From the NCBI GenBank assembly GCA_964006375.1, contig OZ023267.1, forward strand, positions 28,332,739 to 28,396,738: 64,000 bases of DNA, given 5' to 3'. A program made the translations under genes and the position numbers. Position 1 is the stretch's first letter, and every line of letters begins with the position of its first letter. The notes under the pieces were generated by a model. That model did no database searches, was not told where the DNA came from, and saw nothing but the letters and a program-made list of their open reading frames with translations. This document shows, one piece after another, positions 11,538 to 31,711 of this stretch. Source of the stretch: Tillus elongatus. Lineage: Eukaryota > Arthropoda > Insecta > Coleoptera > Cleridae.

Positions 11538-13507
11538 GGTGTCCCTCTAACAATGGGCCAACCCATATATTCGGATAGAGAATCAAAAATTAAATAGACT
11601 TTTATTAATACGTTTTGTCCAATTGTTGCTTGTTTTCGATATACAGTGTGTTAAATTTGACTTTGAAAAAAATTAAATCGCTCGTTTTTCTGCTAATTAC
11701 TGGAATATTAATTTGGAACTTTGTAATAGGGGGTTATCGAGGATGCCGCTTCCAACCGTGATACCTATTTTGAGCTACATCATAGTTGGCGCCACCTACA
11801 CTAAACCCGAATGTTTTACAGGGGCATAACTTTTTCGATGATCAACTTTCTGCAAATCTGTTCAGAAAAACTGAAAACTACTAATTTTTTGTTCGAAAAA
11901 GGTATACTTAGTTGACACTCATAAAGTGGGTGGTTACCGAGATATTGCGGTTTTAATAATGGTGTGCATTGAAAATCTCTCAAATCTGAAATTTTATTAA
12001 CATTATTATTATCACTAAATTATAAGAAAAAATTGACAATTATCGAACAATTCACTTAATAAGATTCTCAAAATGGCCTCCGCCTACTTCAATACATTTT
12101 TCTAGTCTCAACCCAAAATTTTGCCTCACCTTAAAAAAAGTTTGATAATCGTTTTTCAATATATCACTGGATTCGATTATTCTAGCCCAAAGTTCATCTC
12201 TGGAGTTACAAATATTCTTGTATACTAATTCTTTCAAGTGACCCCAGAGGAAGAAATCTAGAGGATTGAGGTCGGGGCTACGTGCAGGCCAAGGAAAATC
12301 TCCACCTCGACCTATCCATCGGCGCGGATAATTTTGGTTCAGAAATTCTCTGACAGGAAGTCCATAATGGGCAGGTGCCCCGTCGTGAATGAACCATAAT
12401 CTCCTGCGCACGTCTAGAGGGACATCTTCCAAGAGAATAGGAAGTTGATCTCTCAAGAAAATTGAATAATTCTCCACATTGAGCCTTGCAGGAAGTTCTA
12501 TTGGTCCCAACAACACGTCGCCTAGTATGCCACACCAGACATTAATAGAGAACTCATGTTGAAAATGGTGTTCTCGCGTCAAATGAGGATTGCTGCTGTC
12601 ATATGTGTGAGCATTTTTGAAATTGAAAACTCCTCTTCTTGTGAATGTCGCTTCGCCAGTGAATAGAATGTTGTTGAAGAAAAACGGATCGTCATTCTGA
12701 TACCGACGAATGCGTTCACAAAAATCAAATCTAGATAGAAAATCTAGAGGTAAAAGATTCTGCACTGGTGTGAAGTGGTAAGGATGTAACTTTTCTTTTC
12801 TGAGAAGTCTACCAGTACTTGATTTATTTATTCCAGTTGCTGCAGAGAGGCGTCTTACGCTTGTTTCCGGATCTTCTGCAAGGCGTACTAATATCTCTTC
12901 CTCTTGATGTACAGGACGTCTTGATCCACCAACTTCCGACTTCGAATTGAAAGAACCAGTTTCACATACGAATACATTAGGACGAAATGATACGCATCCG
13001 TGTAACAAAATGTGTATTTCACGATTTTTCCAGCCCTCAGGTGTGAATTTTGTCAAAACTTTCGTTTCAGAAATAATCAATGGCAATGAGTGCATATTAC
13101 TCTTTTACATACCTAATTTATCGTATAATCTTCTAAAGGTCTTGTGATCTGGTTGGCTACGACTAGGATATAATTCCAAGTATCTGGCGGCGGCTTGGTG
13201 GATACGGAAGTTTAATTGCGCATAAACGCAGATCATATCTCTCTTCTCAATATTGCTAAACTCATTATGGCGAGGCATTTCAGAAATAATAACTACCTAC
13301 TGCTCTTAATTGAAAAACCATGTGCTTGTCAAAATTGACAAATTATGTTTATTGTGTTACGCAAATGACATCCCTATGAAAACGAAAAACAAAAGATATT
13401 TCATCTACTTCATTGACAGTTGTTGACCCGGCCAATCAACTGCTATAGTTATTAGCGCCGTGATATGTCCACAGGAATACATATTTTATTTGCCAAAAAC
13501 ATACTTA
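11535..13507 (-). mobile_element. Tc1/mariner-superfamily transposon, 3' half
   Basis: Terminus CAGGGTGTCCCTCTAACAAT at 11535, directly after (TA)n. It is followed by about 500 bp of non-coding sequence, the transposase gene on the minus strand (12052-13278) and 230 bp of 5' sequence, up to the nested element that starts at 13508. The 11540-12000 segment reappears inverted at 16730-17173, with a short transposase fragment next to it at 16640-16730. The two may be remnants of one element opened by the insertion plus an inverted duplication, or two head-to-head copies. Confidence 0.7.
12052..13278 (-). pseudogene. Transposase with DUF4817-like N-terminus, near-intact
   Basis: The long open frame (12052-13095, 347 codons) has the IS630/Tc1-mariner layout: a helix-turn-helix (SVRRLSAATGINKSSTGRLL), then LFTGEATF where the first catalytic Asp is expected, WFIHDGAPAHY with the second, and SPDLNPLDFFLWG with the third. 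The first Asp reads Gly here (FTGEATF), so the DDD triad is broken. Upstream in another frame, 13278-13140 encodes MPRHNEFSNIEKR...AARYLELYPSR, the DUF4817-like N-terminal domain of this family, so the true gene began at 13278. The two parts are separated by about 150 bp bounded by GTATGT on both sides, which could be an intron or a small insertion. Inactive or barely degraded. Confidence 0.75.
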
Positions 13508-16548: not shown

Positions 16549-17173
16549 ATGAAATCGAATTAAATCCAGAGAAACTTCCCAATTTTTAGGAATTGATTTA
16601 GAATTAGAAAATTATGATTAAAATACACCGACCTCAATCCTCTAGAATTTTCCATTGGGGTTACTTGAAACAACTGGTACATACATAATAATGTTTGTAA
16701 CTCCAGAGATGAACTTTGGGCCAGAATAAAATTTCAGATTTGAGAGATTTTCAATGCACACCATTATTAAAACCGCAATATCTCGGTAACCACTCACTTT
16801 ATGAGTTTCAACTAAGTATACCTTTTTCGAACAAAAAGTTAGTAGTTTTCAGTTTTTCTGAACAGATTTGCAGAAAGTTGATCATCGAAAAAGTTATGCC
16901 CCTGTAAAACATTCGGGTTTAGTGTAGGTGGCGCCAACTATGATGTAGCTCAAAACAGGTATCACAGTTGGAAGCGGCATCCTTGATAACCCCCTATTAC
17001 AAAGTTCCAAATCAATATTCCAGTAATTAGCAGAAAAACGAGCGATTTAATTTTTTTCAAAGTCAATTTTAACACACTGTATATCGAAAACAAGCAACAA
17101 TCGGACAAAACGTATTGATGAAAGTCTATTTAATTTTTGATGCTCTATCCGAATATATGGGTCTGGCCCATTG
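16549..17173 (+). mobile_element. Inverted partial copy of the 11535-13507 transposon
   Basis: 16640-16730 matches the C-terminal part of the transposase gene in + orientation (CCTCAATCCTCTAGA, GTAACTCCAGAGATGAACTT). 16730-17173 is the inverted counterpart of 11540-12000, ending ATATATGGGTCTGGCCCATT. The last 15 or so bases of the expected terminus are missing. Homology stops near 17173, where the virus-like element begins. Confidence 0.7.
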
Positions 17174-17204
17174 TAGTAGGTAATGCGGCACTTTGAGCAG
17201 ACAG

Positions 17205-17227
17205 TGACGTCACAGGAAGTGACGTCA
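17205..17227. promoter_or_regulatory. Two CRE palindromes TGACGTCA at the left end
   Basis: TGACGTCA at 17205-17212 and 17220-17227. Another lies at 17524-17531 and one in the right TIR at 27440-27447. This is the consensus site of CREB/ATF bZIP factors. Function here is inferred only from the match and from its repetition in both TIRs. Confidence 0.5.
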
Positions 17228-17460
17228 CGGCGCCGGCGCCACGCCCTGGCGCCGGCGCCACGCCCTGGCGCCTGCCCTGGCGCCGGCGCCACGCCCTGGC
17301 GCCTGCCCCGGCGCCGGCGCCTAGCCACGCCCTGGCGCCGGCGCCTGCACTGGCGCCTGCACTGGCGCCTGCCCTGGCGCCTGCCCCGGCCCCGGCGCCT
17401 AGCCACGCCCCCGGCCCAGGCGCCAAGCCCCGGCGCCAGCCCCGGCGCCCAGCCACGCCC
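17228..17460. repeat. GC-rich GGCGCC array, left
   Basis: Imperfect short units such as GGCGCCGGCGCCACGCCCT and GGCGCCTGCCCT repeated for 230 bp, in an otherwise strongly AT-rich window. The Ala/Gly/Arg-rich open frames here are compositional artefacts. Confidence 0.9.
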
Positions 17461-17618
17461 TGGGCCAGACAGTCACATCCGTGTTATTCTGCATTCTAAG
17501 GTCATTGACCTGTCTAGGAAACTGTGACGTCACACGACTTGGGCCAGACAGTCACATGCAAACATTTCAAAGTGTCTAACCTATTACTTCAAATTATTAT
17601 ATTTTGAAAAAAACCATT

Positions 17619-17690
17619 TGGTGCAGGTGAGTTTCGAACCCGGGGCATTCAGATGGGAGGCAACGATGCTACCCGTTGAGCTAAGCAGAC
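17619..17690 (-). tRNA. tRNA-Gly(CCC)-like sequence in left TIR, degenerate
   Basis: On the minus strand there is an A-box-like TTAGCTCAACGGGTAGC, an anticodon-loop-like CCTCCCATC (CCC), a B-box GGGTTCGAAAC and an encoded CCA end, 72 nt in all, the size of a tRNA. Acceptor, anticodon and T stems pair poorly by eye, so this is a tRNA-derived sequence rather than a sound tRNA gene. It is identical or nearly so to the copy in the right TIR. Confidence 0.45.
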
Positions 17691-17955
17691 GCTTATTAAT
17701 TTATTGTTTTAGGTTGGTATATATATATACGACTACAAACAAACCATACATGTAACATAATTAAAGTTTATTATTAGACAAATGGATGATTTACAAAATA
17801 ATGTTTAATATTAGAGGCGGAACCAAAACGGAAGAACCAAAATGGCGGAATGAAAGATGGAAGCCTGTGATACCTTAAGCTGACATTATAAAAATGGCGG
17901 CTTTCTTTCTTAAAGAGAAGGAAGTTCAGAAACAAAATAGACAACAGGTTCAACC

Positions 17956-19130
17956 GTGAGATGTACGATGGAACCAATACATGCACGGTGTTAAGGAGGC
18001 CAAATCAAATTGGAATATACAATAAAATGGCCACTTCCGGTCTAAACTTTAAATCGTTATATCTTTTGAAGGACAAGTGATAGAAATGAACTGACTTTAA
18101 AAAATGTATGTTTCATAACAAGGTCTACAAGAAACTGAGATAAAAAACTTTAAACCCTTATCGCGGAAGATCCGTGAGACGTACGCAGGAACCAATACAT
18201 GCACGGTATTAAGGAGGCCAAATCAAATTGGAATATACAATAAAATGGCCACTTCCGGTCTAAACTTTAAATCGTTATATCTTTTCAACGACAAGTGATA
18301 GAAATGAACTGACTTTAAAAATATATCGTTTCATAACAAGCTCTACAAGAAAATGAGATAAAAAACTTTAAACCCTTATCGCGGAAGATCCGTGAGATGT
18401 ACGATGGAACCAACACATGCACGGTGTTAAGGAGGCCAAATCAAATTGGGATATACAATAAAATGGCCACTTCCGGTCTAAACTTTAAATCGTTATATCT
18501 TTTCAACGACAAGTGATAGAAAGGAACCGACTTCAAAAATGTATGTTTCGTAACAAGCTCTACAAGAAAATGAGATAAAAAACTTTAAACCCTTATCGCG
18601 GAAGATCCGTGAGATGTACGAGAGAACCAACACATGCACGGTGTTAAGGAGGCCAAATCAAATTGGAATATACAATAAAATGGCCACTTCCGGTCTAAAC
18701 TTTAAATCCTTGTATCTTTTCAACGACAAGTGATAGAAAGGAACTATCTTCAGAAATGTATGTTTCGTAACAAGATCTACAAGAAACTGAGATAAAAAAC
18801 TTTAAACCCTTATCGCGGAAGATCCGTGAGATGTACGCTGGAACCAATACATGCACGGTGTTAAGGAGGCCAAATCAAATTGGAATATACAATAAAATGG
18901 CCACTTCCGGTCTAAAACTTTAAATCGTTATATCTTTTCAATGGAAAGTGATAGAAAGGAACCGACTTCAAAAATGTATGTTTCGTAACAAGGTCTACAA
19001 GAAACTGAGATAAAAAACTTCAAACCCTTATCGCGGAAGATCCGTGAGATGTACGATAGAATCAATACATACACGCTGTTCAGCAAAGCAAACTCTATAA
19101 GCATATTCAATAAAAATGTTACTTCCGGTA
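17956..19130. repeat. 218-bp tandem satellite, five full units plus a partial
   Basis: The unit start GTGAGATGTACG recurs at 17956, 18174, 18392, 18609, 18826 and 19044, a period of 217-218 bp. Each unit includes CATGCACGGTGTTAAGGAGG, AAAATGGCCACTTCCGGTCT and TTATCGCGGAAGATCC. Units differ by only a few bases. It lies just inside the left TIR of the virus-like element. No coding frame is conserved. Confidence 0.92.
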
Positions 19131-19643
19131 GACACTTCCGGTATAGCTATTCTTAGAGCTACATACATGTGTGACACATCAAAATAATCGTCTTGTTGAA
19201 CAGAAGAAATATAATATTTAAGTAAGTTAGAACAAGCTGTATTAACACCTAAAACCAACACACACTCTCTTGTACAGGCTGATTACCCTGCCATCCAATT
19301 GTTAGTAAGGTTATGTTTGTATTTGTTATTTGAATACAAACAGACATAATAAGAAGAGTGTACTTACATACAGCAAGACACGTCATCCTTGTTTCACGAC
19401 TTAACACATACTGAACAAGTGTCTCTCTCTCTTGTATTGAGGAAACAAACTGATGTAAGAGAGAGGGGGTCTTACAAAGGATAAACAACGTTTTTTACAG
19501 TTGTTAACCTTACAGAAAGGGGTTAATAAAAATGCAACAAAATAAAAATAAAACAACTGATTTACATACAATAAAAATTTATTAGGATTAATTAAGTTGT
19601 ACATATTGATACATAAATGACATACATAAATGACATACTATTA
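19131..19643. other. Subterminal spacer, no convincing gene
   Basis: This lies between the satellite and the capsid gene. Short frames are unrelated to anything I recognise. It contains GTCTCTCTCTCTTG and, inverted, AAGAGAGAGGG, a possible hairpin at 19420-19470, and an AATAAA on the minus strand (TTTATT at 19576-19581) just downstream of the capsid gene stop. Confidence 0.45.
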
Positions 19644-20849
19644 TTACATAATGGCTCTAACGATACCCGTTAGAGGTTTATATTCCATTACACTGTCATG
19701 AATAACCAGACAATAAACACGAGTATTTTTTGGGAAGTTGGCGTGACTCATAAACTCCACCTTAATGTCCACCGTTGAAGACTTGATTGACTCGTTCTGG
19801 TACTGACAGTCAATCACAAATAGAGCTCTGTCTTTAAACTCGTCATAATTCAAGATAGGCTCCGACATGTTTTTATAACAGAAGCTTTTTTGAAAATCTG
19901 TATACATGTTATAGGCTTCTGCATATTTCGATTTCTCAAAATCCATATTCATAGATTCATAAGGGTAGCATTCTGAATTTAGAAACACTCTGAGGTCCAA
20001 CATACCAATGTTATCGAAATAGTCTGACCTCTTCTTCACGTTATCCTTACGATCTGTTTGAAATGCTATAATCACATATCGAGGTCTTTCCAAGTTGGTT
20101 GCAGTTTTAACAGCCCACACATCTCTGTTGATATCTCTGAGTGCTGGTAACTCATATATGTCCCATTTGCGGTATGCGAGAAATATAGAGGTGTCTTTGG
20201 CTATTTTATCCATCAGTTCCAATTTCATTTTATCATTGGGAAATACATGTTTTACCTTTAAAAACATATTGGTTACGGTAATTTTTGCTCGTGCCGTACC
20301 TGTGCTGTAATAGCCGTTGGAATCGTTTCGACTTCTTGTAAAGCGGAAAGTATGTTTGCCACAGAGAACTCCTTTGAAATGATGAAAGAAACTGAAGAGG
20401 AACCAGACAGGTATGAGCATGTGAAACTTGTTATCATTTAAGGTGATGTGCTCCGACGACACATTCAGACCGGCGTTGCTAAGAGATTGGGCTTCATTCT
20501 TACTGAACGATAGCAGACTTTTGATGATGGTTGTGGTGTATGGGTCTCGCACTCGTTCCACTTCCTTGTTATTTAACTCATAGGTCATTGATTCAAACAG
20601 AGCTGCTCCTCCATTATTTGACAGATAACAAGCACCAGTGGCATTTTGGATTGCTACAGGTTCCAGAGCACCTTCGATTATTAGAGCTGACTCGGCCAGA
20701 CATACGAACGCATCTTGTTGGTTGATGGCTATTTCAATTTCATCGCTGTTACCAAACGATTTAGTTGGTGAATAGTAAGAACGCAGCTCTTCTCGATCGA
20801 TGCCATCATCAAACACGGGTTCTTTGAATATTTCTAGTTTTGACGACAT
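19644..20849 (-). CDS. Candidate double-jelly-roll major capsid protein
   Basis: 401 codons from the ATG at 20849 (an in-frame extension to 20942 starts upstream, but MSSKLEIF is the better start). The protein is beta-rich without membrane segments or signal peptide. It has a block around residues 85-105 (FESMTYELNNKEVERVRD) and an internal segment around 147-170 (VWFLFSFFHHFKGVLCGK), in the positions and style of Polinton/adintovirus major capsid proteins. The position, directly downstream of the penton candidate on the same strand, fits a late capsid operon-like cluster. Assignment is by pattern, not alignment; a structural comparison could still swap the roles of this and the neighbouring capsid protein. 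Confidence 0.7.
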   Translation of the reverse strand: MSSKLEIFKEPVFDDGIDREELRSYYSPTKSFGNSDEIEIAINQQDAFVCLAESALIIEGALEPVAIQNATGACYLSNNGGAALFESMTYELNNKEVERVRDPYTTTIIKSLLSFSKNEAQSLSNAGLNVSSEHITLNDNKFHMLIPVWFLFSFFHHFKGVLCGKHTFRFTRSRNDSNGYYSTGTARAKITVTNMFLKVKHVFPNDKMKLELMDKIAKDTSIFLAYRKWDIYELPALRDINRDVWAVKTATNLERPRYVIIAFQTDRKDNVKKRSDYFDNIGMLDLRVFLNSECYPYESMNMDFEKSKYAEAYNMYTDFQKSFCYKNMSEPILNYDEFKDRALFVIDCQYQNESIKSSTVDIKVEFMSHANFPKNTRVYCLVIHDSVMEYKPLTGIVRAIM

Positions 20850-20971
20850 GATAACCCAGGCTTTGCAGGAACTCAATATTATCGGGACGAAGCGTACCCT
20901 TTGACGTGTCTGACTCAACTGAATTTGATGTGGTAGATGCACTTGATTTTATATCCTTGAAGACCAACATA

Positions 20972-21682
20972 CTAAGCAACTTTTATAAGTTTTAAGCGAA
21001 CAGACACCTCTTCACCTTGAAAGTTGACAGGAACTGAATCTTGGTCGACGATGTCGATGCTTATATTGGAAATCTCTTGCTTGTTCACCGGCAAGTAAAT
21101 TAAATTGTTAGGTTCTATGTCGATTGCGTAGCCAGGATCAACCATCGGAGCAAACTCATACAGCGTATGTGAGGGTTGTCCGTTATAATAGGAACCAGAC
21201 ACAATATTGGTTTCGATGCGAATCTGTCTAACATCCACTATATCAACAGGTAAATCAGATTCATAAAAGGTGTCCGGCTGAAGAACTTGTTTTGAAAAGC
21301 CCAACATTCGCCCAATCGAACCATCAAATTCAAAACTGACATTTGTATAACACTTTAGTCTACATTTGATGGTGTTCGGATTAGGTCTCAGAAGCAGAGC
21401 CTGTTGCTTTTGTTCGTGTGTTGCTGTAGCACCAACAAGTTCATTTTGAAGTAACTCTTCCAAGTGTGTTATTTCATAAGCACCGGTGGGTATCGTGATG
21501 GTTCGCCAACCGGTTCCTTCTTTTACATGAAATTTGTTTTTACCTTCATAGATGTTGGGTATGTTGTTGTAGGTGTGAAAGCCTATCAAGGCAACAGCAT
21601 AATTACCATCCAAAACAATTGGTGGATGGTAGTCTGACGACAGATGGGAGCTGCGGTCTTTCAACACAAAGGTGTGCGCCAT
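20972..21682 (-). CDS. Candidate penton/minor capsid protein
   Basis: 236 codons, ATG at 21682. The start MAHTFVLKDRSSHL and the segment ITIPTGAYEITHLEELLQNE (about 64-83) resemble the small single-jelly-roll vertex proteins encoded next to the capsid gene in Polintons and adintoviruses. It is rich in predicted beta strands, with no Cys-rich or helical-coil regions. It is 122 bp upstream of the major capsid start and 16 bp after the protease stop, all on the minus strand, suggesting one transcription unit. Confidence 0.65.
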   Translation of the reverse strand: MAHTFVLKDRSSHLSSDYHPPIVLDGNYAVALIGFHTYNNIPNIYEGKNKFHVKEGTGWRTITIPTGAYEITHLEELLQNELVGATATHEQKQQALLLRPNPNTIKCRLKCYTNVSFEFDGSIGRMLGFSKQVLQPDTFYESDLPVDIVDVRQIRIETNIVSGSYYNGQPSHTLYEFAPMVDPGYAIDIEPNNLIYLPVNKQEISNISIDIVDQDSVPVNFQGEEVSVRLKLIKVA

Positions 21683-21698
21683 GACTGATACACACAGG

Positions 21699-22151
21699 CT
21701 ACTGTTTAAGGCTTTTATTTAAAAATTTTAAACATAAGTGACCACAATTATAAGTATTATATTTCTGATACACATCATGATTGTACATTAAAGTAGAGTT
21801 TTTAAGGTAACGCTGCAGCTCAACTGGTGGTTTCAAGTTTCCATATGAGTCAAAGTACACGGCTGTGTCACCACGTTTCTTAACTGCAACCCAATGACTG
21901 CCAGGTTCCTTGTTTGTTTGCAAATTCATGATAAGTGATTCATTCTTGCGTGGCCCATTCGATGGCAAAGTATCTCGCATGTATACACCTCTAAAATATG
22001 GAATTTTCATTTTACCAGCAAATTTCACAAGGTCTTCATTTGTTAGAGGTCTTGCTGGTAAACATCTTACTCGTTTTTTGGTTTCTGCAGATACAACCCA
22101 TAACCGGAGCGCTGTTTCTTGAGATACATGCCTGTGCCCAGTCTCTTGCAT
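21699..22151 (-). CDS. Adenain-type cysteine protease (virion maturation)
   Basis: 150 codons, ATG at 22151, overlapping the upstream pX-like gene by 85 bp in another frame. It has the adenovirus-protease/Ulp1-like triad in the right order and context: His86 in GSHWVAV, Asp101 in VYFDSYG, and Cys136 in the NCGHLC box. LTNEDLVKFA near residue 36 is the usual N-terminal block of Polinton proteases, so the functional start may be further in. The role inferred from the family is to cleave capsid and core precursor proteins during assembly. All catalytic residues are present, and length and spacing are normal for Polinton proteases. Confidence 0.9.
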   Translation of the reverse strand: MQETGHRHVSQETALRLWVVSAETKKRVRCLPARPLTNEDLVKFAGKMKIPYFRGVYMRDTLPSNGPRKNESLIMNLQTNKEPGSHWVAVKKRGDTAVYFDSYGNLKPPVELQRYLKNSTLMYNHDVYQKYNTYNCGHLCLKFLNKSLKQ

Positions 22152-22579
22152 TTTGGCTTAAATTTCAAGCCACTCCCTCTCCTACCCATCGCGATGGCTT
22201 CCATTGTTTTGTTGTGCCGTTCTTCCTCCTCTAGTTTCTGTTTCGCAGACTTGGCATCGTTCACGGCTTTGGCAATACCTGCAGCACCACCACCCAGAGC
22301 TCCTAGTGCTGACAGCCCACCAAATATCAGAGGCAACAGCGGAAGGAAGCCTCCACTTTTAGGTATTGGAATAACTCGAGGTTTCTGCACATTCTTACGC
22401 CCACCAATGTTTCTAACGATTGTATGAGCTATATCAAATACGGCGTTCGCTGTTGGAATAAGATTTCTATCTTTTATAACTTCCTCAATCAGACTTAGTA
22501 TGTTTTTAAAGGGAACCTTCTTCTTTGGCTTCGAGTTGATTACATAAAACCCCTCATTAAGTTTTCTGTTAACTTTCAT
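22067..22579 (-). CDS. pX-like core/membrane-active virion protein
   Basis: 170 codons from the ATG at 22579 (MKVNRKLNEGF). Residues about 78-107 form a Gly/Ala-rich hydrophobic stretch (FGGLSALGALGGGAAGIAKA), followed by a charged helix (KSAKQKLEEEERHNK) and a basic, Gly-rich tail. This is the layout of adenovirus pX/pVI-like minor core proteins and their Polinton counterparts, probably DNA-binding and membrane-disrupting during entry (family inference). It heads the minus-strand capsid cluster and is divergent from the ATPase across a 158-bp intergenic region. It ends inside the protease gene. Confidence 0.75.
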   Translation of the reverse strand: MKVNRKLNEGFYVINSKPKKKVPFKNILSLIEEVIKDRNLIPTANAVFDIAHTIVRNIGGRKNVQKPRVIPIPKSGGFLPLLPLIFGGLSALGALGGGAAGIAKAVNDAKSAKQKLEEEERHNKTMEAIAMGRRGSGLKFKPKCKRLGTGMYLKKQRSGYGLYLQKPKNE

Positions 22580-22737
22580 GGTGTTTGTAACGCCCCGCAA
22601 CGTTTCAGCAAAACCTGTATCTGTCTTTGTTAATAACAGCCCTCACTCTGTGACACCAACATGCATACTGACTGGGTGTCTCACTTGCATTCATATATAT
22701 ACACACCCAAATAAAATATAGTTTAGTTTAAGTTAAG
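22580..22737. promoter_or_regulatory. Divergent intergenic promoter region
   Basis: 158 bp between the pX-like gene (minus) and the packaging ATPase (plus). It includes a TATA-like run CATATATATACACACC at 22691-22706, about 40 bp before the ATPase ATG, and ACACCCAGT-type short repeats. It probably drives both late-gene clusters. Confidence 0.5.
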
Positions 22738-23433
22738 ATGCGTACCAGCAAACACGCTTCTGCCTTACCCATTACAAATATAGACGATGTTGTTACGGAC
22801 ACAGCTCAACAACAACTGAGGCATGGTCCTCTCTTTCCAAACACCGTTCGCTGTATCATATGTGGTCCCAGTGGGTGTGGTAAAACTAATGTCATGCTGA
22901 GTTTGTTGTTTGAAGCAAACGGTTTAAAATTTGATAACGTGTATGTGTATTCAAAGTCTCTGTATCAACCGAAATACAAGATGTTAAAGGAGGTGATGAA
23001 TGCCACAAAAGGTGTTGGTTACTATCCTTATCGAGAAAACGATGAAATATTAGATCCGGAAGATGCCAAGGACAACTCTGTGTTTATATTTGATGATGTA
23101 GCTTGTGACAAACAAGATAAAATAAGAGCATACTTCAGTATGGGCAGACATAAGAATATTGATTCATTCTATCTCTGTCAAACATATACACGAATACCCA
23201 AACATCTGGTACGTGACAACACCAATGTTATTGTGTTATTCAAGCAAGATGAAACCAATTTAAAACATGTGTACGACGATCATGTGACCACCGATATGGA
23301 CTTTAAACAATTTAAAACTATCTGCCACCAATGCTGGAAAGATAATAAGTATGGTGTGTTGGTGATTGTGAAGGAAAACGATGTACACAAAGGTCGATAT
23401 AGAAAAGGATTCGATAGATATATATTATTCTAA
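22738..23433 (+). CDS. FtsK/A32-type genome-packaging ATPase
   Basis: 231 codons, ATG at 22738. The Walker A motif is GPSGCGKT at residues 43-50 (Lys49, Thr50). The Walker B is VFIFDD at 115-120 and is followed by the sensor-like region YLCQTYTRIPKHLVRDNTN, all typical of the HerA/FtsK-clade ATPases that package DNA in Polintons, virophages and nucleocytoplasmic DNA viruses. Size and order are complete with no frame break, so the protein looks functional. It starts the plus-strand cluster. Confidence 0.92.
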   Translation: MRTSKHASALPITNIDDVVTDTAQQQLRHGPLFPNTVRCIICGPSGCGKTNVMLSLLFEANGLKFDNVYVYSKSLYQPKYKMLKEVMNATKGVGYYPYRENDEILDPEDAKDNSVFIFDDVACDKQDKIRAYFSMGRHKNIDSFYLCQTYTRIPKHLVRDNTNVIVLFKQDETNLKHVYDDHVTTDMDFKQFKTICHQCWKDNKYGVLVIVKENDVHKGRYRKGFDRYILF

Positions 23434-23456
23434 CAAACGATGATAGACAGGACAGT

Positions 23457-23645
23457 CAGCTGTCTAACACAGGTGTCTAACACAGATGTCATACAAGTGT
23501 CTAACACAGCTGTCATACAGCTGTCATACAGCTGTCTAACACAGCTGTCTAACACAGCTGTCTAACACAGCTGTCTAACACAGCTGTCTAACACAGCTGT
23601 CTAACACAGCTGTCTAACACAGCTGTCTAACACAGCTGTCTAACA
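23457..23645. repeat. 13-bp tandem array CAGCTGTCTAACA
   Basis: About 14 units of CAGCTGTCTAACA, the last ten or so perfect, the first few shortened or altered. They lie between the ATPase stop (23433) and the next start (23685). Each unit has CAGCTG, a palindromic E-box-type hexamer. It could be a transcription-factor array, a replication feature or simple slippage. Confidence 0.95.
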
Positions 23646-23684
23646 AGACAGCCAGACATCGTGATAAATAAGAAGGCATGTACC

Positions 23685-24836
23685 ATGAAGGAGTCAGTAT
23701 ATGTTAAACCACCACACAACCTGTATCGCTCAAACAAATTATTAGACCAGCTGGTAATACCGACCAGTTGTAGCACAATGGAAGTGTTGGGTAAGGAAGA
23801 GCGAAAAGTTAAGAAAAGGATTTTACAACTTGCTGACAATATTCGAAAAAAACATTTAATGCTTAAACTTAACAGAGCCGAGAATGATGATGCTCTGCAA
23901 CGTTTATATAAACCACTTGTTGAGCCCCTAAGTGAAATATCTAAAAACACAGCAGCACAGCAGCAGCAGCAGCCCCAGCAACAACCAAAGGCTGAACAAA
24001 TCAAAGAAGAAGTGGTACCAGAAACGAAACCCCAAGTACAGTTCCTTAAAGACCATGAAGTTTTTGAAGCTGAACCTAGGGAAGAGGCTGAGGAGACAAG
24101 TTCCGATGAGGATATCCCAACATTTGAAGAGCTTGAGGCAGATCTACAAACTGTCACATCCAACCCTGCATATCAAGAATTTTTGGAGCAATATCCTGAA
24201 CGAGTTCGATATTATGTAGACAAGTATTTTACTGAACCACCAAGGCTCGCTACCATTGATCAAACGTATGGTGTTCGCTACGCTAAAGATACCGGTAGCT
24301 GGAGTCTTGGCAATAAACACTTGGATTTTACTGATAATGACATTCGACTAGGTCAACGGAGATATCCGCAAACACAAGGTCTGCTAGAATTGATATTTAT
24401 GAAAACACCTAGAGGGTATACCTATGACGATCTTCAACACTATAGAGATATTCTAGAAGCAACTAGTGTGCATAAAATGAACTATGATCCTAACGCACGA
24501 ACCAAGGGTTGTTCCTCTGAAAAGTACCTGACTCTAATAAAACCGGTGATAAATCCACGAGGTCGTAGATCCTCAACTCCTCAAGGTTTTGGTTACGACA
24601 CACATCATAACGCAGAACAAAAAACTGAACCTAGAGCTCAGAATGTAAGCAGCAACACTAACAACTATATGCTACAAAATAACAAACAAATAGAATATGT
24701 CTATTGGGATGACATAAATGAGCTGGTTGATAGACTTAGACTTTTAGTAGCTTCCCAGGCTGCTGGTAATAATGCTCATAACAATGAAATTCAGTCAATC
24801 ATTGAAGAACTGAAGGAGGTTGGTGTTATCGCCTAG
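23685..24836 (+). CDS. PY-like Polinton protein, Gln-rich linker
   Basis: 383 codons from ATG 23685 (MKESVYVKPP; the frame is open upstream but lacks another ATG). Layout: an N-terminal basic coiled region with KEERKVKKRI; a low-complexity Gln run (about residues 91-103); an acidic stretch (EAEETSSDEDIP); a central domain with SWSLGNKHLDF, TKGCSSEKY and TPQGFGYD; and a C-terminal helical end YVYWDDINELVDRLRLL. Proteins with this C-terminus recur in insect Polinton-like elements with the capsid genes (called PY by some authors). The function is unknown and a virion or assembly role is inferred from context. Confidence 0.75.
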   Translation: MKESVYVKPPHNLYRSNKLLDQLVIPTSCSTMEVLGKEERKVKKRILQLADNIRKKHLMLKLNRAENDDALQRLYKPLVEPLSEISKNTAAQQQQQPQQQPKAEQIKEEVVPETKPQVQFLKDHEVFEAEPREEAEETSSDEDIPTFEELEADLQTVTSNPAYQEFLEQYPERVRYYVDKYFTEPPRLATIDQTYGVRYAKDTGSWSLGNKHLDFTDNDIRLGQRRYPQTQGLLELIFMKTPRGYTYDDLQHYRDILEATSVHKMNYDPNARTKGCSSEKYLTLIKPVINPRGRRSSTPQGFGYDTHHNAEQKTEPRAQNVSSNTNNYMLQNNKQIEYVYWDDINELVDRLRLLVASQAAGNNAHNNEIQSIIEELKEVGVIA

Positions 24837-24885
24837 TATACCTACATATATCAAAGATATACCTACCTTAGTGCTTAGTATAAAA

Positions 24886-25335
24886 ATGTCTATCGATAAG
24901 TTCGGACGTTCCCAATCCAATAAAGGTTCTAAGTTTAAAATTATTGAAAGAGAGATTTTCCCAAGAACTACTAGTGGTGATTTTGATTTGCAAAGCCATA
25001 GATTGTGTAACATAGCTGATCCAGTCGATGCAACAGATGGTGTAAATAAAAAATTTGTTGATGTATGGATAGACGACTATCAGAAGAACAAAGATGAGGT
25101 AACACAAAGAATCATTGCCATACTACTTGAAGCTGTACACAAACCTGAGTTGGAAGATTTAAAAAACGAATTTGAAAATAAATTGAAAATTTTAGCTAAG
25201 AACATAACTGCTCAAGTTTTAAAAGATGTTGATGTATTAAAGAATAATAAGCTAAAGAATAAGCTGGGAGAAATAGACAGCAAACTAAAAGATTTACATG
25301 ATAAGTGGATACTTTTAAATCCAACATCGCCATGA
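24886..25335 (+). CDS. Small fibre/collar-like protein
   Basis: 149 codons from the ATG at 24886 in good context (AAAATG); the frame is open upstream but with no other ATG. The N-terminus has TTSGDFDLQSHRLCNIADPV, and VDATDGVNKKFVD follows, a repeat-like motif found in phage and viral tail-fibre or collar proteins. The C-terminal half is a charged coiled coil. It lies 49 bp after the PY-like stop. Its TGA overlaps the next ATG. Function not certain; a structural role fits context. Confidence 0.65.
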   Translation: MSIDKFGRSQSNKGSKFKIIEREIFPRTTSGDFDLQSHRLCNIADPVDATDGVNKKFVDVWIDDYQKNKDEVTQRIIAILLEAVHKPELEDLKNEFENKLKILAKNITAQVLKDVDVLKNNKLKNKLGEIDSKLKDLHDKWILLNPTSP

Positions 25336-25457
25336 AACAAACAGACATCTATCTGGTTGAACGCATCTTGAGGAAGAAAGGCAAGCAGCTCTATGTAAAA
25401 TGGCTGGGTTTTGATAAATCTCAGAATTCTTGGATAAATTCAGATGATGTTAAATAA
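25332..25457 (+). CDS. Free-standing mini chromodomain, 41 aa
   Basis: Too short for usual ORF filters. The frame reads YLVERILRKKGKQLYVKWLG and continues FDKSQNSW. Aromatic-cage positions of chromodomains are met by Tyr7, Trp24 and Phe27, with Trp34 in the place of the usual NTWEP Trp. The C-terminal helix of a full chromodomain is absent. Its ATG overlaps the stop of the preceding gene in the four bases ATGA, a termination-reinitiation arrangement. Polinton integrases end in a chromodomain; here no integrase core precedes it. It could be a chromatin-reading peptide, or a remnant. A -1 shift could also fuse it to the fibre-like protein. Confidence 0.7.
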   Translation: MKQTDIYLVERILRKKGKQLYVKWLGFDKSQNSWINSDDVK

Positions 25458-25566
25458 GCTTATATATTTAATGTATTAATGTACTTAGAATAAAATAAAA
25501 GTCTTTATTAAAATAATGTTATTTTATTTTTTCATCTGGTTACATACAATTAAGCTAAGTGAACAA
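25458..25566. terminator. Convergent 3' ends with poly(A) signals
   Basis: AATAAAATAAAA at about 25489-25500 serves the plus cluster. The run TTTATTAAAATAATGTTATTTTATTT (written as parts: TTTATT at 25504, TTATTTTATTT after 25518) offers AATAAA-like signals for the minus-strand gene that ends at 25567. Confidence 0.55.
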
Positions 25567-26505
25567 TTACAATTTATATCGTAAATCAATAATATCCTGA
25601 ATAAACTTCTCCTGAGGTACATCTGCTATCTGTAGATCGTTTCTCTTCGCCTTGAGGTATTCGACTTCGGTCTTTATTCTGTTAAAGAGATTTACAGAAT
25701 TTGGATCATACAACATGTTTAAAACTACTTCGGAATCAGGGTGTTTATTTTTAAAGTTCTTGACAGCTCTTTTAAAACTTTTCTTCTGAGTCCTTACAGC
25801 ATGATATGGATAGGTAGTATCCTTCTCATTTCTTGAAAGCAAACCAAAAACACAAAGTTTTCCAGGGTTGCTTGGTTTTGGAGATATATCTTCTAAATGT
25901 TCTGTGATTTTAGCATTTGTTTCTCGCATACGCTGCACTTCATCATCTATCTCCATTAATTTCACTTCAATTTCTTTGAGGTTATCCTTGTATTTTTGAT
26001 TAAATTCACTTACGAAAAAATCAAAAATAATTTGGTTGCACTTTTCATAGAAACTATTGGATATCCAACAAGCCAAATTTAATATCAAATCTTTACAGAC
26101 ATATGTACCAGATATCAAGTTGTTTTCAGTCTGTGTTCCACCAAAGTCCACCAAGTATGTAGCGGTTGTAGGTGTTAGTTGAGATGTTGCTTCCAGCACA
26201 TCTAGGGGGCCGGAATTCCGGCCCCCTAGATGTGACTCTAAGTGGACATCTTCGGTTGAAATATTAAGGTAATCGGTATTCTGGCTACCTAAATGTTTCT
26301 TCGCCTGACCGTTGTAATAGGTAATCAACTCTTTAGTTTTCTTATTTTCCAACCAATGTCTGAATCTTTTCTCACCATCTTTACACAGCTTAGTCGCATT
26401 AAAATAACCAGTGTTTTTATCAATAATTAATTGAAAGTCTGCAAATAAACCATACCAGAAGTTGTCTTTAATTTGCTGGTAGCACACATCATTTAATGTA
26501 GCCAT
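25567..26505 (-). CDS. KilA-N protein with DUF3627-like C-terminus
   Basis: 312 codons from ATG 26505 (MATLNDVCYQQ; an upstream non-ATG extension is unlikely). Residues about 15-75 carry the KilA-N/MSV199 DNA-binding signature (DKNTGYFNATKLC, RFRHWL). Residues about 130-165 contain LILNLACWISNSFYEKC. A coiled coil follows at about 170-200, and the C-terminal part has TYPYHAVRTQKKSFKRAVKN and LYDPNSVNLFNRIK, like the DUF3627 domain that accompanies KilA-N in insect iridoviruses and ascoviruses. Probably a DNA-binding regulator, possibly exchanged with large DNA viruses. Its middle is interrupted by a perfect 38-bp palindrome that is still in frame. Confidence 0.85.
   Translation of the reverse strand: MATLNDVCYQQIKDNFWYGLFADFQLIIDKNTGYFNATKLCKDGEKRFRHWLENKKTKELITYYNGQAKKHLGSQNTDYLNISTEDVHLESHLGGRNSGPLDVLEATSQLTPTTATYLVDFGGTQTENNLISGTYVCKDLILNLACWISNSFYEKCNQIIFDFFVSEFNQKYKDNLKEIEVKLMEIDDEVQRMRETNAKITEHLEDISPKPSNPGKLCVFGLLSRNEKDTTYPYHAVRTQKKSFKRAVKNFKNKHPDSEVVLNMLYDPNSVNLFNRIKTEVEYLKAKRNDLQIADVPQEKFIQDIIDLRYKL
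26197..26234. repeat. Perfect 38-bp palindrome within the KilA-N gene
   Basis: Two 19-bp arms with no spacer: CACATCTAGGGGGCCGGAA and its exact complement, centred at 26215/26216 (GGAATTCC). It encodes HLGGRNSGPLDV in the minus-strand frame without breaking it. GC content is far above the surroundings. Confidence 0.97.
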
Positions 26506-26964
26506 TTTAAACACACTACTGAGCACTTGGATACGTTAGAGTTAACTGAAGCACGTCTTACCTCTACGATAACTAAATTTTGAATGAGTTTAACAGTGTG
26601 TAGTGAACAATTTACATGGATGATGTCATCCTTTCGGTTTGTACTAGACAAGCTCAAACACGAGTAATGGGGGTGATTGAACAGATATAACACAAGATAA
26701 CATTCACCAAAGTCATCAACTGACACGTTATTTACCCTAAGCGGGCCTCTCTCTTGCGTATATTAAACAGATACACAGACAAGTTCAAACACAAATAATG
26801 GGGTGATGTCATTCAACGGAAATTACACTAGATAACAACCGTACAGACAAAACTCAAACAGGTTTGTGGAACAGGTTTGTGGATGATGTCATACTTCTAA
26901 CGGCTGTATTCTAGACAAGCTCAAACACGAATACCATTTACCCATCAAGGGGCCCCCTACAGTA
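26506..26964. repeat. Right subterminal region with short degenerate repeats
   Basis: No gene. The motif ACAAGCTCAAACACGA or close variants recurs at about 26648, 26773, 26851 and 26917, often followed by ATAATGGGGTGAT or GATGATGTCAT. Such subterminal iterons are common near transposon ends. The KilA-N gene promoter must lie at the left side of this stretch. Confidence 0.55.
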
Positions 26965-27280
26965 TGTTTCTGAACTTCCTTCTTTTGTTTGCTAACGACC
27001 TCTGTGTGTTATTTTTAAATAAGTCTTCAACCATCTTTATCAGCGAAAGGCACCATCTTTAAGAAAGAAAGCCGCCATTTTTTATAATGTCAGCTTAAGG
27101 TATCACAGGCTTCCATCTTTCATTCCGCCATTTTGGTTCTTCCGTTTTGGTTCCGCCTCTAATATTAAACATTATTTTGTAAATCATCCATTTGTCTAAT
27201 AATAAACTTTAATTATGTTACATGTATGGTTTGTTTGTAGTCGTATATATATACCAACCTAAAACAATAAATTAATAAGC

Positions 27281-27352
27281 GTCTGCTTAGCTCAACGGGT
27301 AGCATCGTTGCCTCCCATCTGAATGCCCCGGGTTCGAAACTCACCTGCACCA
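27281..27352 (+). tRNA. tRNA-Gly(CCC)-like sequence in right TIR, degenerate
   Basis: Plus-strand twin of 17619-17690: A-box-like TTAGCTCAACGGGTAGC, CCC anticodon context CCTCCCATC, B-box GGGTTCGAAAC and CCA at the 3' end, 72 nt. Stem pairing is poor, so a working tRNA is doubtful. The A and B boxes could still recruit RNA polymerase III. Confidence 0.45.
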
Positions 27353-27504
27353 AATGGTTTTTTTCAAAATATAATAATTTGAAGTAATAGGTTAGACACT
27401 TTTGAAATGTTTGCATGTGACTGTCTGGCCCAAGTCGTGTGACGTCACAGTTTCCTAGACAGGTCAATAGAATGCAGAATAACACGGATGTGACTGTCTG
27501 GCCC

Positions 27505-27692
27505 AGGGCGTGGCTGGGCGCCGGGGCTGGCGCCGGGGGCTGGCGCCGGGGGCCGGGGCGTGGCTAGGCGCCGGGGCCGGGGCAGGCGCCGGGGCCGGGC
27601 AGGCGCCAGGGCAGGCGCCAGGCGCGTGGCTAGGCGCCAGGGCGTGGCGCCAGGGCGTGGCGCCGGCGCCAGGGCGTGGCGCCGGCGCCAGG

Positions 27693-27696
<4 letters not shown>
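27505..27696. repeat. GC-rich GGCGCC array, right
   Basis: Inverted counterpart of the 17228-17460 array, with units such as GGCGCCAGGGCGTGGC. It is followed without a break by (GT)n. Confidence 0.9.
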
Positions 27697-27740
<44 letters not shown>

Positions 27741-28432: not shown

Positions 28433-28759
28433 GTAAGTTTATTTTACATAGAAAACAAGATTTGTGCGATTGAGTTTAATGGAGCGTATTATTCGTGTGT
28501 TTAACCCTGACATATAGACTATTCATGAATATAATATTATTTATTTACCGATAATATACAGTTTGACTTTTACAACAGCAATATAACCGAATTAATATTG
28601 ACATTTTTTTCCACAATCAGCAAATAATAATAAACCGACAAAGTCAGAGACTGTGTGTCGATAAACTTCAACATACATTTGCCTACCTTGTAGGTGATTG
28701 AACAGAAATGTGTCCCGAAAACCAAACTCTCGTAGTGAACAAAATCGACAATACTTCGC
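28433..28759. other. Start of a 16.9-kb intron, nothing recognised
   Basis: AT-rich. It runs up to the 5' end of the LINE at about 28760. Confidence 0.4.
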
Positions 28760-31711
28760 ACTTTGGGGGCGCCAACATCGAAATTTAACATATCCTTTTC
28801 GAATATATGTGGCCTAAATTCTAACCTGAACTCCGTCCACCATTTCCTCCAGGCTAACAGGCCCCAACTCCTCTTCCTCACCGAAACCCAAATCAGTGCC
28901 AAAACAGCCACTAATCACCTTAATTTCCCGGGGTATGAGCTCCTTACTTTCTTTAGATTGCATGGAGGCGTGTGCGCATACGTACGTATCAATCTACCCT
29001 GCACCAGACTCCCCAATTTAGAGGCTGGAAGAAAAGACATACTATGGATAAAACTCTCTCTCTCTCAGGGCTGCAACTAAATTCATCTGTTGCATTTACC
29101 GGTCACCTTCTGACAACAACTTTCTCCAGCTCTTTGACTACCTTTCTGAAAAAACCGACTATCTGATTTCTGAATATCCTTCCTCCGACGTCACTATTCT
29201 TGGTGACTTCAATGTCCATAATAAGGAATGGCTAGGATCTTCAAAAACCGATCCACAAGAGAGAGCAGCGGAGGCCTTTGCAATCAGCAATTCTTTAGCC
29301 AATATGGTTCAGCAACCTACTTACTTTCCTCGTATCCCAACACACAGCTCAAATCCCTTGGATCTCCTTCTTACTACAAAACCTGAATGCTATAACATAT
29401 CAGTCACCGCCCCCCTTGGTCGCTCAGACCACGACATGGTGACTGCTTCCTGCGCAATGCAACCCGAGGTCACACAGTCATCACACCCACGTATCGTTTG
29501 GCACTACAACTCCGCAAACTGGGACGAAATGCGGGATTACTTTTCCTCATTTCCATGGGCGTCTGTCTGCTTCTCTCATCTAGACCCCTCTGATATCTCC
29601 CAAAACGTCACCGAAATTATCCAAGCTGGCATGGAATTATTTATTCCCCATACACAGAAAACTTCTTCAGCCACTCAAAAGCTCTGGTTCTCTAAATCCT
29701 GTGACAAGGCCAGACCTGAAAAGATCAAAGCTCACAAAACGCTTCTACACAATCCCAGTCAAGAAAATCGTCAAGCGTTTAACGACGCAAGAGACCGCTA
29801 TGTCCGCATTCTTTCTGAGGCAAAAAACTCGTTTAATAACCACATCAAAAACAAAGTCCTCTCAAGCTCCAACGTCAGCAAACCCTTCTGGACTCTTGCT
29901 AAATCTATTGGGAATAATTTCTGCAAAAGCACGTTCCCACCTCTTGTCTCAGGGGATGAAATTGTTTCTACCGCCCTGGGCAAGGCTGAACTTTTTGCTT
30001 TGTTGTTCGCCAGCAATTCTACTCTCAACCCACCTCCAAATGTTCAACCACCAACAGTCCCCAATGTCGCGCATAAAATGACGGATATCATTTTCAAAAC
30101 TAAAAAGGTACGAAAGATGCTCTCTTCTCTTAATACCAGGAAAGCCTCTGGCCTTGACGAGATTCCAGCAATTGTTCTCAAAAATTGCGCACCAGAACCT
30201 GCTCCTGTCCTGACTCGTCTGTTTCAGATATCTTACAATAAAGGCATATTCCCTAGTAACTGGAAAACTGCTCGAGTACAACCTATCCCCAAGAAAGGAT
30301 CCAAAGCGCTTCCTAGCAACTACAGGCCTATCTCTCTGCTTTCAGTCGTCTCTAAAGTGATGGAAAAGTATATAAACACCGAATTACTAAAATTTCTTTA
30401 AAAACACAGTCTAATCCACGACAGGCAGTATGGATTCCGTCAGCGCAATTCGACTGCCGACCTCCTTTCCTTTGTCACCCATTCTTGGAACAAGTCTATG
30501 GAACTACACGTTGAATCTCAGATTGTTGCTCTAGACATATCCAAAGCATTTGACCAGGTCTGGCACGCAGCGCTGCTTAATAAACTTCCGGCCTATGGCC
30601 CACCACCAAAACTTTGTACCTGGACAGCAAATTTCCTCTCCAACAGGAACATTTCTGTTGTTGTGGATGGCCATTCCTCTAAACTGTATCCAATTAATGC
30701 AGGAGTTCCTCAAGGTTCAGCTTTAGCCCCTACTTTGTTTATTCTCCACATCAATGACCTCCTCTCTAGCACATCCAACCCAGTTCACAGTTACGCGGAC
30801 GACAGCACCCTCCACTCAAATATACAATATTCTAAGCCTGTCTTTTTAGCCCAATTAGATGAGGATCGCAGACTCATGGAGGTTCTGTCTCCATGGATCT
30901 CCAAAAAATATTAGACTGGGGAAGTAGAAATCTTGTACAATTCAACCCCACCAAATCTCAGTCTTGCTTTCTTTCTCATAAGAGATACACCAGCCCTAGA
31001 CCCATCACAATGAACAACCAAGTTATTCAAAGTTATGAGTCCTTTTCTCTTGTTGGCATTTCTGTGGATCGAAATCTTAACTGGCACCAACATGTCATAT
31101 CAATTGCAGAAGCAGCTGCTAAGAAATTAGGTTTCCTCTTCCGGGCTCGCAAATACTTCTCACCAGCTAATCTCTATACCTTATACACTTCACAAATAAG
31201 GCCAAACCTCGAATACTGCTCCCACATCTGGGGTGCAGCTGCCGCTTCTACACTCGCTATCCTGGACTCCATTCAAAATAGAGCTACACGTCTCATCGGT
31301 GACCCTACCCTCACCCAAAGGCTGCCATCCCTTGCCCACCGACGTGCCGTTGGTGACCTCTCTCTCTTTTATAGATATCTGCACGGGCACTGCTCAGAGA
31401 AGCTTTCCTCCATAGTTCCCCCACCTGCTGCCCGCAACAGATCTATCAGGGGAACAGAGCGAATGCACCCTTTTACTGTCCAAGTCACCAGACATAGAAC
31501 ATCTCGTTATGCCCGCTCTTTTGTCCCGAGGAGTTCCAAGTTTTGGAATTCCTTACCGGCACATGTTTTTCCTTCTGCTCCGAACCTCCGGACCTTCAAG
31601 TCCAGAATTAACAAGTTGGCTCTTTCCTCCTTGTCAACACCCACGGTACGATAGTATTTAGGCTGTAAGCCCTCGTGGTGTGTTGAAAAGATTAAAAAAT
31701 AAATAAAAAAA
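28760..31711 (+). mobile_element. LINE-A copy 3, nearly full ORF2, inactivated
   Basis: Longest copy of the family. An apurinic-like endonuclease begins near 28784 (NICGLNSNLNSVHHFL), shifts frame near 29070, and continues with ILGDFNVHNKEWL and LGRSDHDMV. The reverse transcriptase follows: RKASGLDEIP (about 30140), the NYRPISLLSVV block, PQGSALAPTLF and YADDST (about 30795). A G-to-T change creates a stop at 30399 (GAA to TAA, against the 33.9-kb copy). A further shift lies at about 30905 in an A6 run. The C-terminal part continues to 31654, and the 3' tail is A-rich. It looks Jockey/BS-like; ORF1 is not seen. Confidence 0.87.

What the first reader, a model, noticed from the sequence alone, without database searches (positions are those of the whole stretch)
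17174..27696. Polinton-like capsid element with no DNA polymerase or integrase, in a host intron
Seen: 0.7-kb TIRs enclosing nine ORFs, including an adenain-type protease with His/Asp/Cys triad, a packaging ATPase with Walker A and B, a pX-like protein and two capsid candidates, all intact. Known: Polintons/Mavericks and adintoviruses are recognised by protein-primed PolB plus an RVE integrase. Neither is visible; the ten kilobases are otherwise accounted for. Inference: this is a satellite-type element that could form particles but borrows replication and integration from a helper, or a derivative that lost them recently, since the capsid genes are uninterrupted. Keeping the capsid genes while losing the mobility genes is the reverse of ordinary transposon decay.
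Basis: partly seen in the sequence, partly recalled or inferred. Interest (0 to 1): 0.88.

Follow-up and report, generated by a model that had tools for sequence, protein, structure and literature searches.

The report
Capsid part of a split Polinton
This is one of many near-identical copies of a virus-like jumping element that carries capsid genes but neither a DNA-copying enzyme nor an integrase; both enzymes turn up on two other kinds of element in the same animal genome with the same end sequences, which suggests a virus whose genome is split into separately integrated parts.

Summary
In detail: a 10.5-kb element (17175-27697) with a full capsid module, no PolB and no integrase core, probably in a sulfatase-gene intron. 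It is not alone: 150 of 150 scored ATPase matches are identical in protein, and the 39-nt tip occurs 223+/224- times. Exact 6-bp target duplications flank 6 of 6 testable small copies and 10 of 10 large ones, the Polinton signature. Two other element types share these tips and the 218-bp repeats: B has PolB but no capsid gene or integrase where read; C has its own capsid genes and an rve-chromodomain integrase but no PolB. None of 77 PolB loci lies within 50 kb of any of 150 integrase loci (lists capped). The window's type A keeps an integrase scar, start codon fused in frame to the chromodomain end, so its integrase core was deleted. Capsid genes of A and C diverged under purifying selection, yet repeats and some stretches remain 93-99% alike. 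Best reading: a Polinton split over complementing elements, A being an amplified capsid-bearing dependent. Complementation is inferred, not shown.

The parts
17169..17174 (.). CATTGT, expected left target duplication; no partner, right tip lost
17175..17953 (+). left TIR: tip with TGACGTCA motifs, GC-rich variable block, inner arm
17954..19196 (+). 218-bp tandem repeats, also in types B and C
19644..20849 (-). [quoted passage not shown]
   Evidence: PF21738 1.7e-76; model and PDB matches
20972..21682 (-). penton / minor capsid protein, 236 aa
   Evidence: model pLDDT 93 and viral penton fold matches
21699..22151 (-). adenain/Ulp1-type cysteine protease, 150 aa
   Evidence: PF02902 1.4e-4; 84-86% identical pieces in type C
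22067..22579 (-). pX-like core protein, 170 aa; the type C homologue has an extra phospholipase A2 domain
22738..23433 (+). packaging ATPase, 231 aa
   Evidence: PF04665 6.1e-9; 150 identical matches in the genome
23457..23645 (+). 13-bp minisatellite, length varies between copies
23685..24836 (+). DUF8207-type protein, 383 aa
   Evidence: homologues carry PF26634/DUF8207; no direct Pfam match
24886..25335 (+). orf7, 149 aa, weak fibre-like N-terminus
   Evidence: PF03906 E 0.0029, below cut-off; 72% in type C
25332..25457 (+). integrase scar: start codon fused in frame to the chromodomain end, 41 aa
25567..26505 (-). KilA-N + DUF3627 protein, 312 aa
   Evidence: 8.6e-24 and 3.6e-20
26613..26978 (.). 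366 bp 99.2% identical to the type C element
27079..27697 (-). right TIR, outer tip lost into (GT)n

Best explanation
The window holds a type A element of a split (multipartite) Polinton system. Three element types with the same tips and 218-bp repeats coexist in one animal genome. A (window; mostly 10.5-11.0 kb): capsid module plus KilA-N, integrase core deleted in frame. B (18.4 kb in the one exact tip pair): PolB, a duplicate of its N-terminal domain, a matrixin metalloprotease. C (mostly 18.4-18.9 kb): a second, diverged capsid module plus an rve-chromodomain integrase. SHOWN: gene contents of the pieces read, shared tips and repeats, 6-bp target duplications, many near-identical copies of each type, the integrase scar, purifying selection on capsid genes between A and C, near-identical stretches shared between types. 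INFERRED: B's PolB copies all three from the shared tips by protein priming, C's integrase inserts them, and capsid proteins of A and/or C package them, so that A spreads as a dependent that still supplies capsids.
For: 39-nt tip 223+/224-, reversed control 0/0. TSD 6 of 6 A copies with both tips and 10 of 10 large elements incl. one B and one C. B. C. C1: of 36 tip pairs 11 carry ATPase-A only, 8 integrase only, 1 PolB only, 0 two of these, 16 none listed. 0 of 77 PolB loci within 50 kb of 150 integrase loci. At 100% protein identity: at least 150 ATPase-A, 49 integrase, 8 PolB matches, query loci included. Scar. dN/dS 0.06-0.26 for three capsid-module genes, saturated for MCP and penton. A-C 99.2% over 366 bp, B-C 98.4% over 312 bp.
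Against: No complementation, particle, expression or transmission data. All lists are capped: a complete element could be missed. 16 of 36 C1 tip pairs are unclassified, two of them 18.4 and 19.1 kb long. 28 of 39 ATPase-A loci listed on C1 are not inside an exact tip pair. Only one C element (15.0 of 18.8 kb) and two B regions (neither to its far tip; the C1 one lacks the exact tip and has stops in PolB) were read. TIR identity A-B is only 84-94%. One ATPase-A/PolB pair is 14.5 kb apart and one ATPase-A/integrase pair 18.4 kb apart.
Confidence: 0.7

Rival explanations
1. Ordinary non-autonomous derivatives: a complete Polinton (PolB + integrase + capsid) with these tips exists in the genome or existed until recently, and A, B and C are separate deletion products that it mobilised.
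For: The integrase scar shows that deletion happens; deleted and rearranged copies exist (L020, L021, L025); 16 of 36 C1 tip pairs unclassified and all lists capped.
Against: 0 of 77 PolB loci near 150 integrase loci; five PolB regions read, of three divergence classes, hold no integrase or capsid gene apart from a KilA-N fragment; A and C capsid genes are too diverged to be recent deletions of one parent.
Confidence: 0.2
2. A and C do not use B at all: the integrase of C moves them and host or other viral polymerases copy them; the similar ends of B reflect common descent only.
For: TIR identity between A and B is only 84-94%; PolB matches at 100% identity are few, 8 of 43.
Against: Identical 39-nt tips in A, B and C; B and C share 312 bp at 98.4%, which points to a common pool.
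Confidence: 0.07
3. Assembly artefact that removed several kilobases from the window copy.
For: Repeat-rich ends; this copy's right end runs into a microsatellite.
Against: 8 of 11 A-type tip pairs on C1 are 10.49-10.98 kb long; 26 of 30 fetched 3.7-kb pieces are collinear with the window; clean 6-bp duplications.
Confidence: 0.02

Closest known systems
Polinton / Maverick (Polintoviricetes)
   Same: TIRs, AGT-like ends, 6-bp target duplications (PMC8097293, passages), MCP, penton, protease, packaging ATPase
   Different: PolB and rve integrase, its hallmarks (PMC11071308, passages), are absent here and sit on two other elements
Adintoviruses and other meldviruses
   Same: virion genes, integrase with chromodomain in type C; PMC11071296 (passages) notes genomes with adenovirus-class virion proteins that lack recognisable PolB and integrase
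   Different: in the passages seen no partner elements with common ends and complementary genes are described
Polinton-like viruses (PLVs)
   Same: DJR capsid module without pPolB or rve integrase (PMC11071308, passages)
   Different: no other replication gene found here; a Polinton-type integrase scar and 6-bp duplications instead
Segmented bidnaviruses
   Same: genome parts; PolB of Polinton origin (PMC11071296 and PMC11071308, passages)
   Different: parvovirus-related, small ssDNA; here large integrated dsDNA elements

Membership tests
Polinton / Maverick | TIRs with 6-bp target duplications | tested here: met
   family level: 6 of 6 and 10 of 10; the window copy itself has lost its right tip
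Polinton / Maverick | MCP, penton, protease, packaging ATPase | tested here: met
Polinton / Maverick | protein-primed PolB in the element | tested here: not met
   PolB is on type B
Polinton / Maverick | rve integrase in the element | tested here: not met
   only a 41-aa scar; integrase is on type C
Adintovirus | OTU-PolB plus chromodomain integrase plus hexon in one genome | tested here: not met
   hexon relationship to adintoviruses not tested by sequence
Polinton-like virus | other replicase such as helicase or primase-polymerase | tested here: not met
   no such match for the eight ORFs above a curated cut-off
Multipartite virus | parts with common termini and complementary genes | tested here: met
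   for the elements read or listed
Multipartite virus | parts are packaged and transmitted and depend on each other | not testable with these tools
   needs virion, expression or population data

The most novel reading that the evidence does not exclude
A multipartite Polinton: a double-stranded DNA virus lineage of an animal whose genome is lastingly divided into separately integrating parts (a PolB part, a capsid-plus-integrase part, and a capsid part that shed its integrase), held together by identical tips, exchange of ends and complementation; a case of cheating turning a virus multipartite, readable in one genome.
Probability: 0.5. Interest if true: 0.92.

Novelty: new variant of a known kind. 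Interest (0 to 1): 0.85.

Why it matters
Polintons are seen as self-contained, with PolB and integrase on one molecule. Here the two lie on different elements with identical ends, and a third, very abundant type has neither but keeps capsid genes. If the parts complement each other, this is a split, large, integrating dsDNA virus system of an animal, and a record of how a deletion derivative that still makes a shared product (capsids) can prosper. Theory holds that cheating can produce multipartite viruses (PMC10159356, abstract); this genome would let that be examined. Screens keyed on PolB or integrase would miss such elements.

Tried and rejected
Rejected: lone decayed copy (150 of 150 scored matches identical); assembly gap; hidden PolB or integrase core in the window element; recent deletion of the one type C element read (MCP 42% identical).

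Led nowhere: IMG/VR scans with the MCP alignment and with the ATPase found no relatives; PHROGs and NCBIfam scans gave mostly weak matches. Ten literature searches listed no title or abstract start on Polintons split over complementing elements; I read passages of six papers and the abstract of one, the library holds open-licence PMC papers only, and the adintovirus paper is not held. L006 aligns only in part and was not followed. The protease gene is closer between A and C (87-90% in DNA) than its neighbours; not explained.
Full report
The thing itself. The window lies at G000:C6:28332739-28396738 of a 1.72-Gb, 30-contig genome. The element runs from 17175 to about 27697. From the left it has a TIR with a GC-rich variable block, 218-bp repeats (to 19196), then MCP, penton, protease and pX on the minus strand, ATPase, DUF8207-type protein and orf7 on the plus strand, KilA-N on the minus strand, and the right TIR. 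The MCP model (pLDDT 87) matches iridovirus, PBCV-1, Faustovirus, Sputnik and mavirus capsid proteins, TM-score 0.5-0.64 over the query. The penton model (pLDDT 93) matches a MELD penton, adomavirus LO5, mavirus minor capsid and an adenovirus penton among 48 matches at E 0.001 or better. The DUF8207 name comes from homologues, not from a direct match. Sulfatase sequence lies on both sides on the same strand, so an intron is likely.

One of very many. A whole-genome search with the ATPase scored 150 of 6083 first-look candidates; all 150 are identical in protein. In the 30 fetched, the 693-nt ORF has 3 alleles, 0-2 differences apart. 26 of the 30 3.7-kb pieces are collinear with the window; L020 and L021 carry internal deletions, in L025 the left part is replaced by inverted right-end sequence, and L006 aligns only in part.

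Ends. Of ten copies whose two ends were fetched, six had both tips in the pieces and all six have an exact 6-bp target duplication (two in TA runs, weak); two had one tip and two none. The true tip begins AGTAGGTAATG; the window copy has it on the left only. 6-bp duplications and AG/AGT ends are described for Mavericks (PMC8097293, passages).

The missing genes lie elsewhere, behind the same ends. The exact 39-nt tip occurs 223 times forward and 224 reverse; the reversed-pattern control gives 0 and 0; only the first 100 places are listed, all 90 of C1 and 10 of C2. On C1 36 pairs form (a 207-bp pair left out; 16 tips stay single): most are 10.4-11.0 or 18.4-19.1 kb, others 6.5-12.5 kb and two 16.8-16.9 kb. 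Type B: PolB of 1057 aa with a 256-aa continuation, a 141-aa protein 61% identical to PolB residues 3-132, a ~100-aa ORF and a matrixin (PF00413; hemopexin found in the longer piece). Two type B regions (C3 20 kb, C1 19 kb) share TIR and 218-bp repeats with the window and hold no capsid gene or integrase; neither was read to its far tip, and the C1 one has stops in PolB and no exact tip. The element C1:6657009-6675391 has exact tips, PolB inside and a 6-bp duplication but was not read inside. PolB: 43 scored of 2022 candidates, 8 at 100% protein identity; the query locus and four others agree at 99.97-100% over 3171 nt. Type C: one element, C1:15964333-15983116, read over 15.0 of 18.8 kb: MCP (PF21738, 4.6e-60), penton, protease pieces, pX with a phospholipase A2 domain (PF08398, 1.2e-11), ATPase, DUF8207-like protein, orf7 copies, integrase (rve 2.6e-11; chromo 8.8e-5, below its cut-off). 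No PolB in the part read; the unread 2.2 and 1.6 kb at the ends could not hold one of 3.9 kb. Integrase: 150 scored of 11466 candidates, 96-100% identical, 49 at 100%. Ten of ten large tip pairs on C1, among them this B and this C element, have exact 6-bp duplications; on C1 eight pairs carry the integrase.

Never together in what was listed. On C1 the 36 pairs hold ATPase-A only 11, integrase only 8, PolB only 1, two of these 0, none listed 16. 28 of 39 ATPase-A loci listed on C1 lie outside an exact tip pair, as the window's own copy does, by tip loss or tip variants. Genome-wide, 0 of 77 PolB loci are within 50 kb of any of 150 integrase loci; 0 of 150 ATPase-A loci are within 12 kb of integrase or of the 43 PolB loci, but one ATPase-A/PolB pair is 14.5 kb apart (an 89%-identical PolB) and one ATPase-A/integrase pair 18.4 kb. 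Three further PolB regions (PolB 57-68% identical to type B; 14-29 kb read) also show no integrase or capsid gene at E 0.001, apart from a 34-aa KilA-N match in two. The lists are capped and the integrase list covers near relatives only, so this is strong but not complete.

How type A arose. Where type C has its integrase, right after orf7, the window has the integrase's start followed in frame by the chromodomain end, a 41-aa ORF. A thus lost the integrase core by an in-frame deletion; whether the 41-aa ORF is used is unknown. It is no recent product of the C element read: MCP 42% and penton 51% identical with saturated synonymous sites; dN/dS 0.06 (ATPase, dS 2.5), 0.26 (DUF8207) and 0.20 (orf7). 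By contrast the 218-bp repeats are 93-96% alike between types, 366 bp beside the right TIR are 99.2% identical between A and C, and 312 bp 98.4% between B and C. TIRs of A and B are 84-94% alike. The simplest account is that the types share a replicating pool and exchange ends. Whether an A-line parent with intact integrase survives is unknown.

How it most likely works (inference). B's PolB copies linear genomes from the common tips by protein priming; C's integrase inserts them with 6-bp duplications; capsids of A and/or C package them. A is spared the integrase but keeps the capsid genes and is very abundant. L025 looks like a snap-back product of a linear genome with TIRs. The TGACGTCA motifs in the tip recall ATF/CREB sites of adenovirus ITRs (recalled, not tested).

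What is known. PMC4028283 (passages) reports Polintons that lost capsid genes, protease and ATPase together, the opposite direction. PMC11071296 (passages) notes genomes with adenovirus-class virion proteins that lack PolB and integrase; PMC11071308 (passages) says PLVs mostly lack both and encode other replication proteins. In ten searches I saw no report of PolB and integrase split over elements with common ends (listed under Tried and rejected). Homologues of MCP, penton and the DUF8207 protein occur in insect genomes and in assembled read sets, so the arrangement can be looked for widely.

Noticed in passing
L072:3642-5435; L063:1-1590: The PolB-type element carries a 598-aa matrixin metalloprotease with hemopexin match (PF00413 3.3e-28), perhaps a captured host gene.
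   Followed up: partly
L063:5501-5923: A free-standing 141-aa protein 61% identical to PolB residues 3-132, perhaps a duplicated terminal-protein domain.
   Followed up: partly
G000 places, e.g. C4:101722449(+) and 101735531(-): Eleven neighbouring PolB pairs 7-16 kb apart, many in opposite orientation, suggesting palindromic PolB elements.
   Followed up: no
L025 (C5:38333161): A copy whose left part is replaced by inverted right-end sequence, like a snap-back replication product.
   Followed up: no
L079:232-1044: Type C pX protein has a phospholipase A2 domain (PF08398 1.2e-11) that type A's shorter pX lacks.
   Followed up: partly
window 17184-17230: Tip carries two TGACGTCA motifs, possible ATF/CREB sites (recalled).
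   Followed up: no
window 12052-13104, 28739-31654, 53220-55063: Transposon-like ORFs, by eye mariner, non-LTR and pogo/Tigger types.
   Followed up: no
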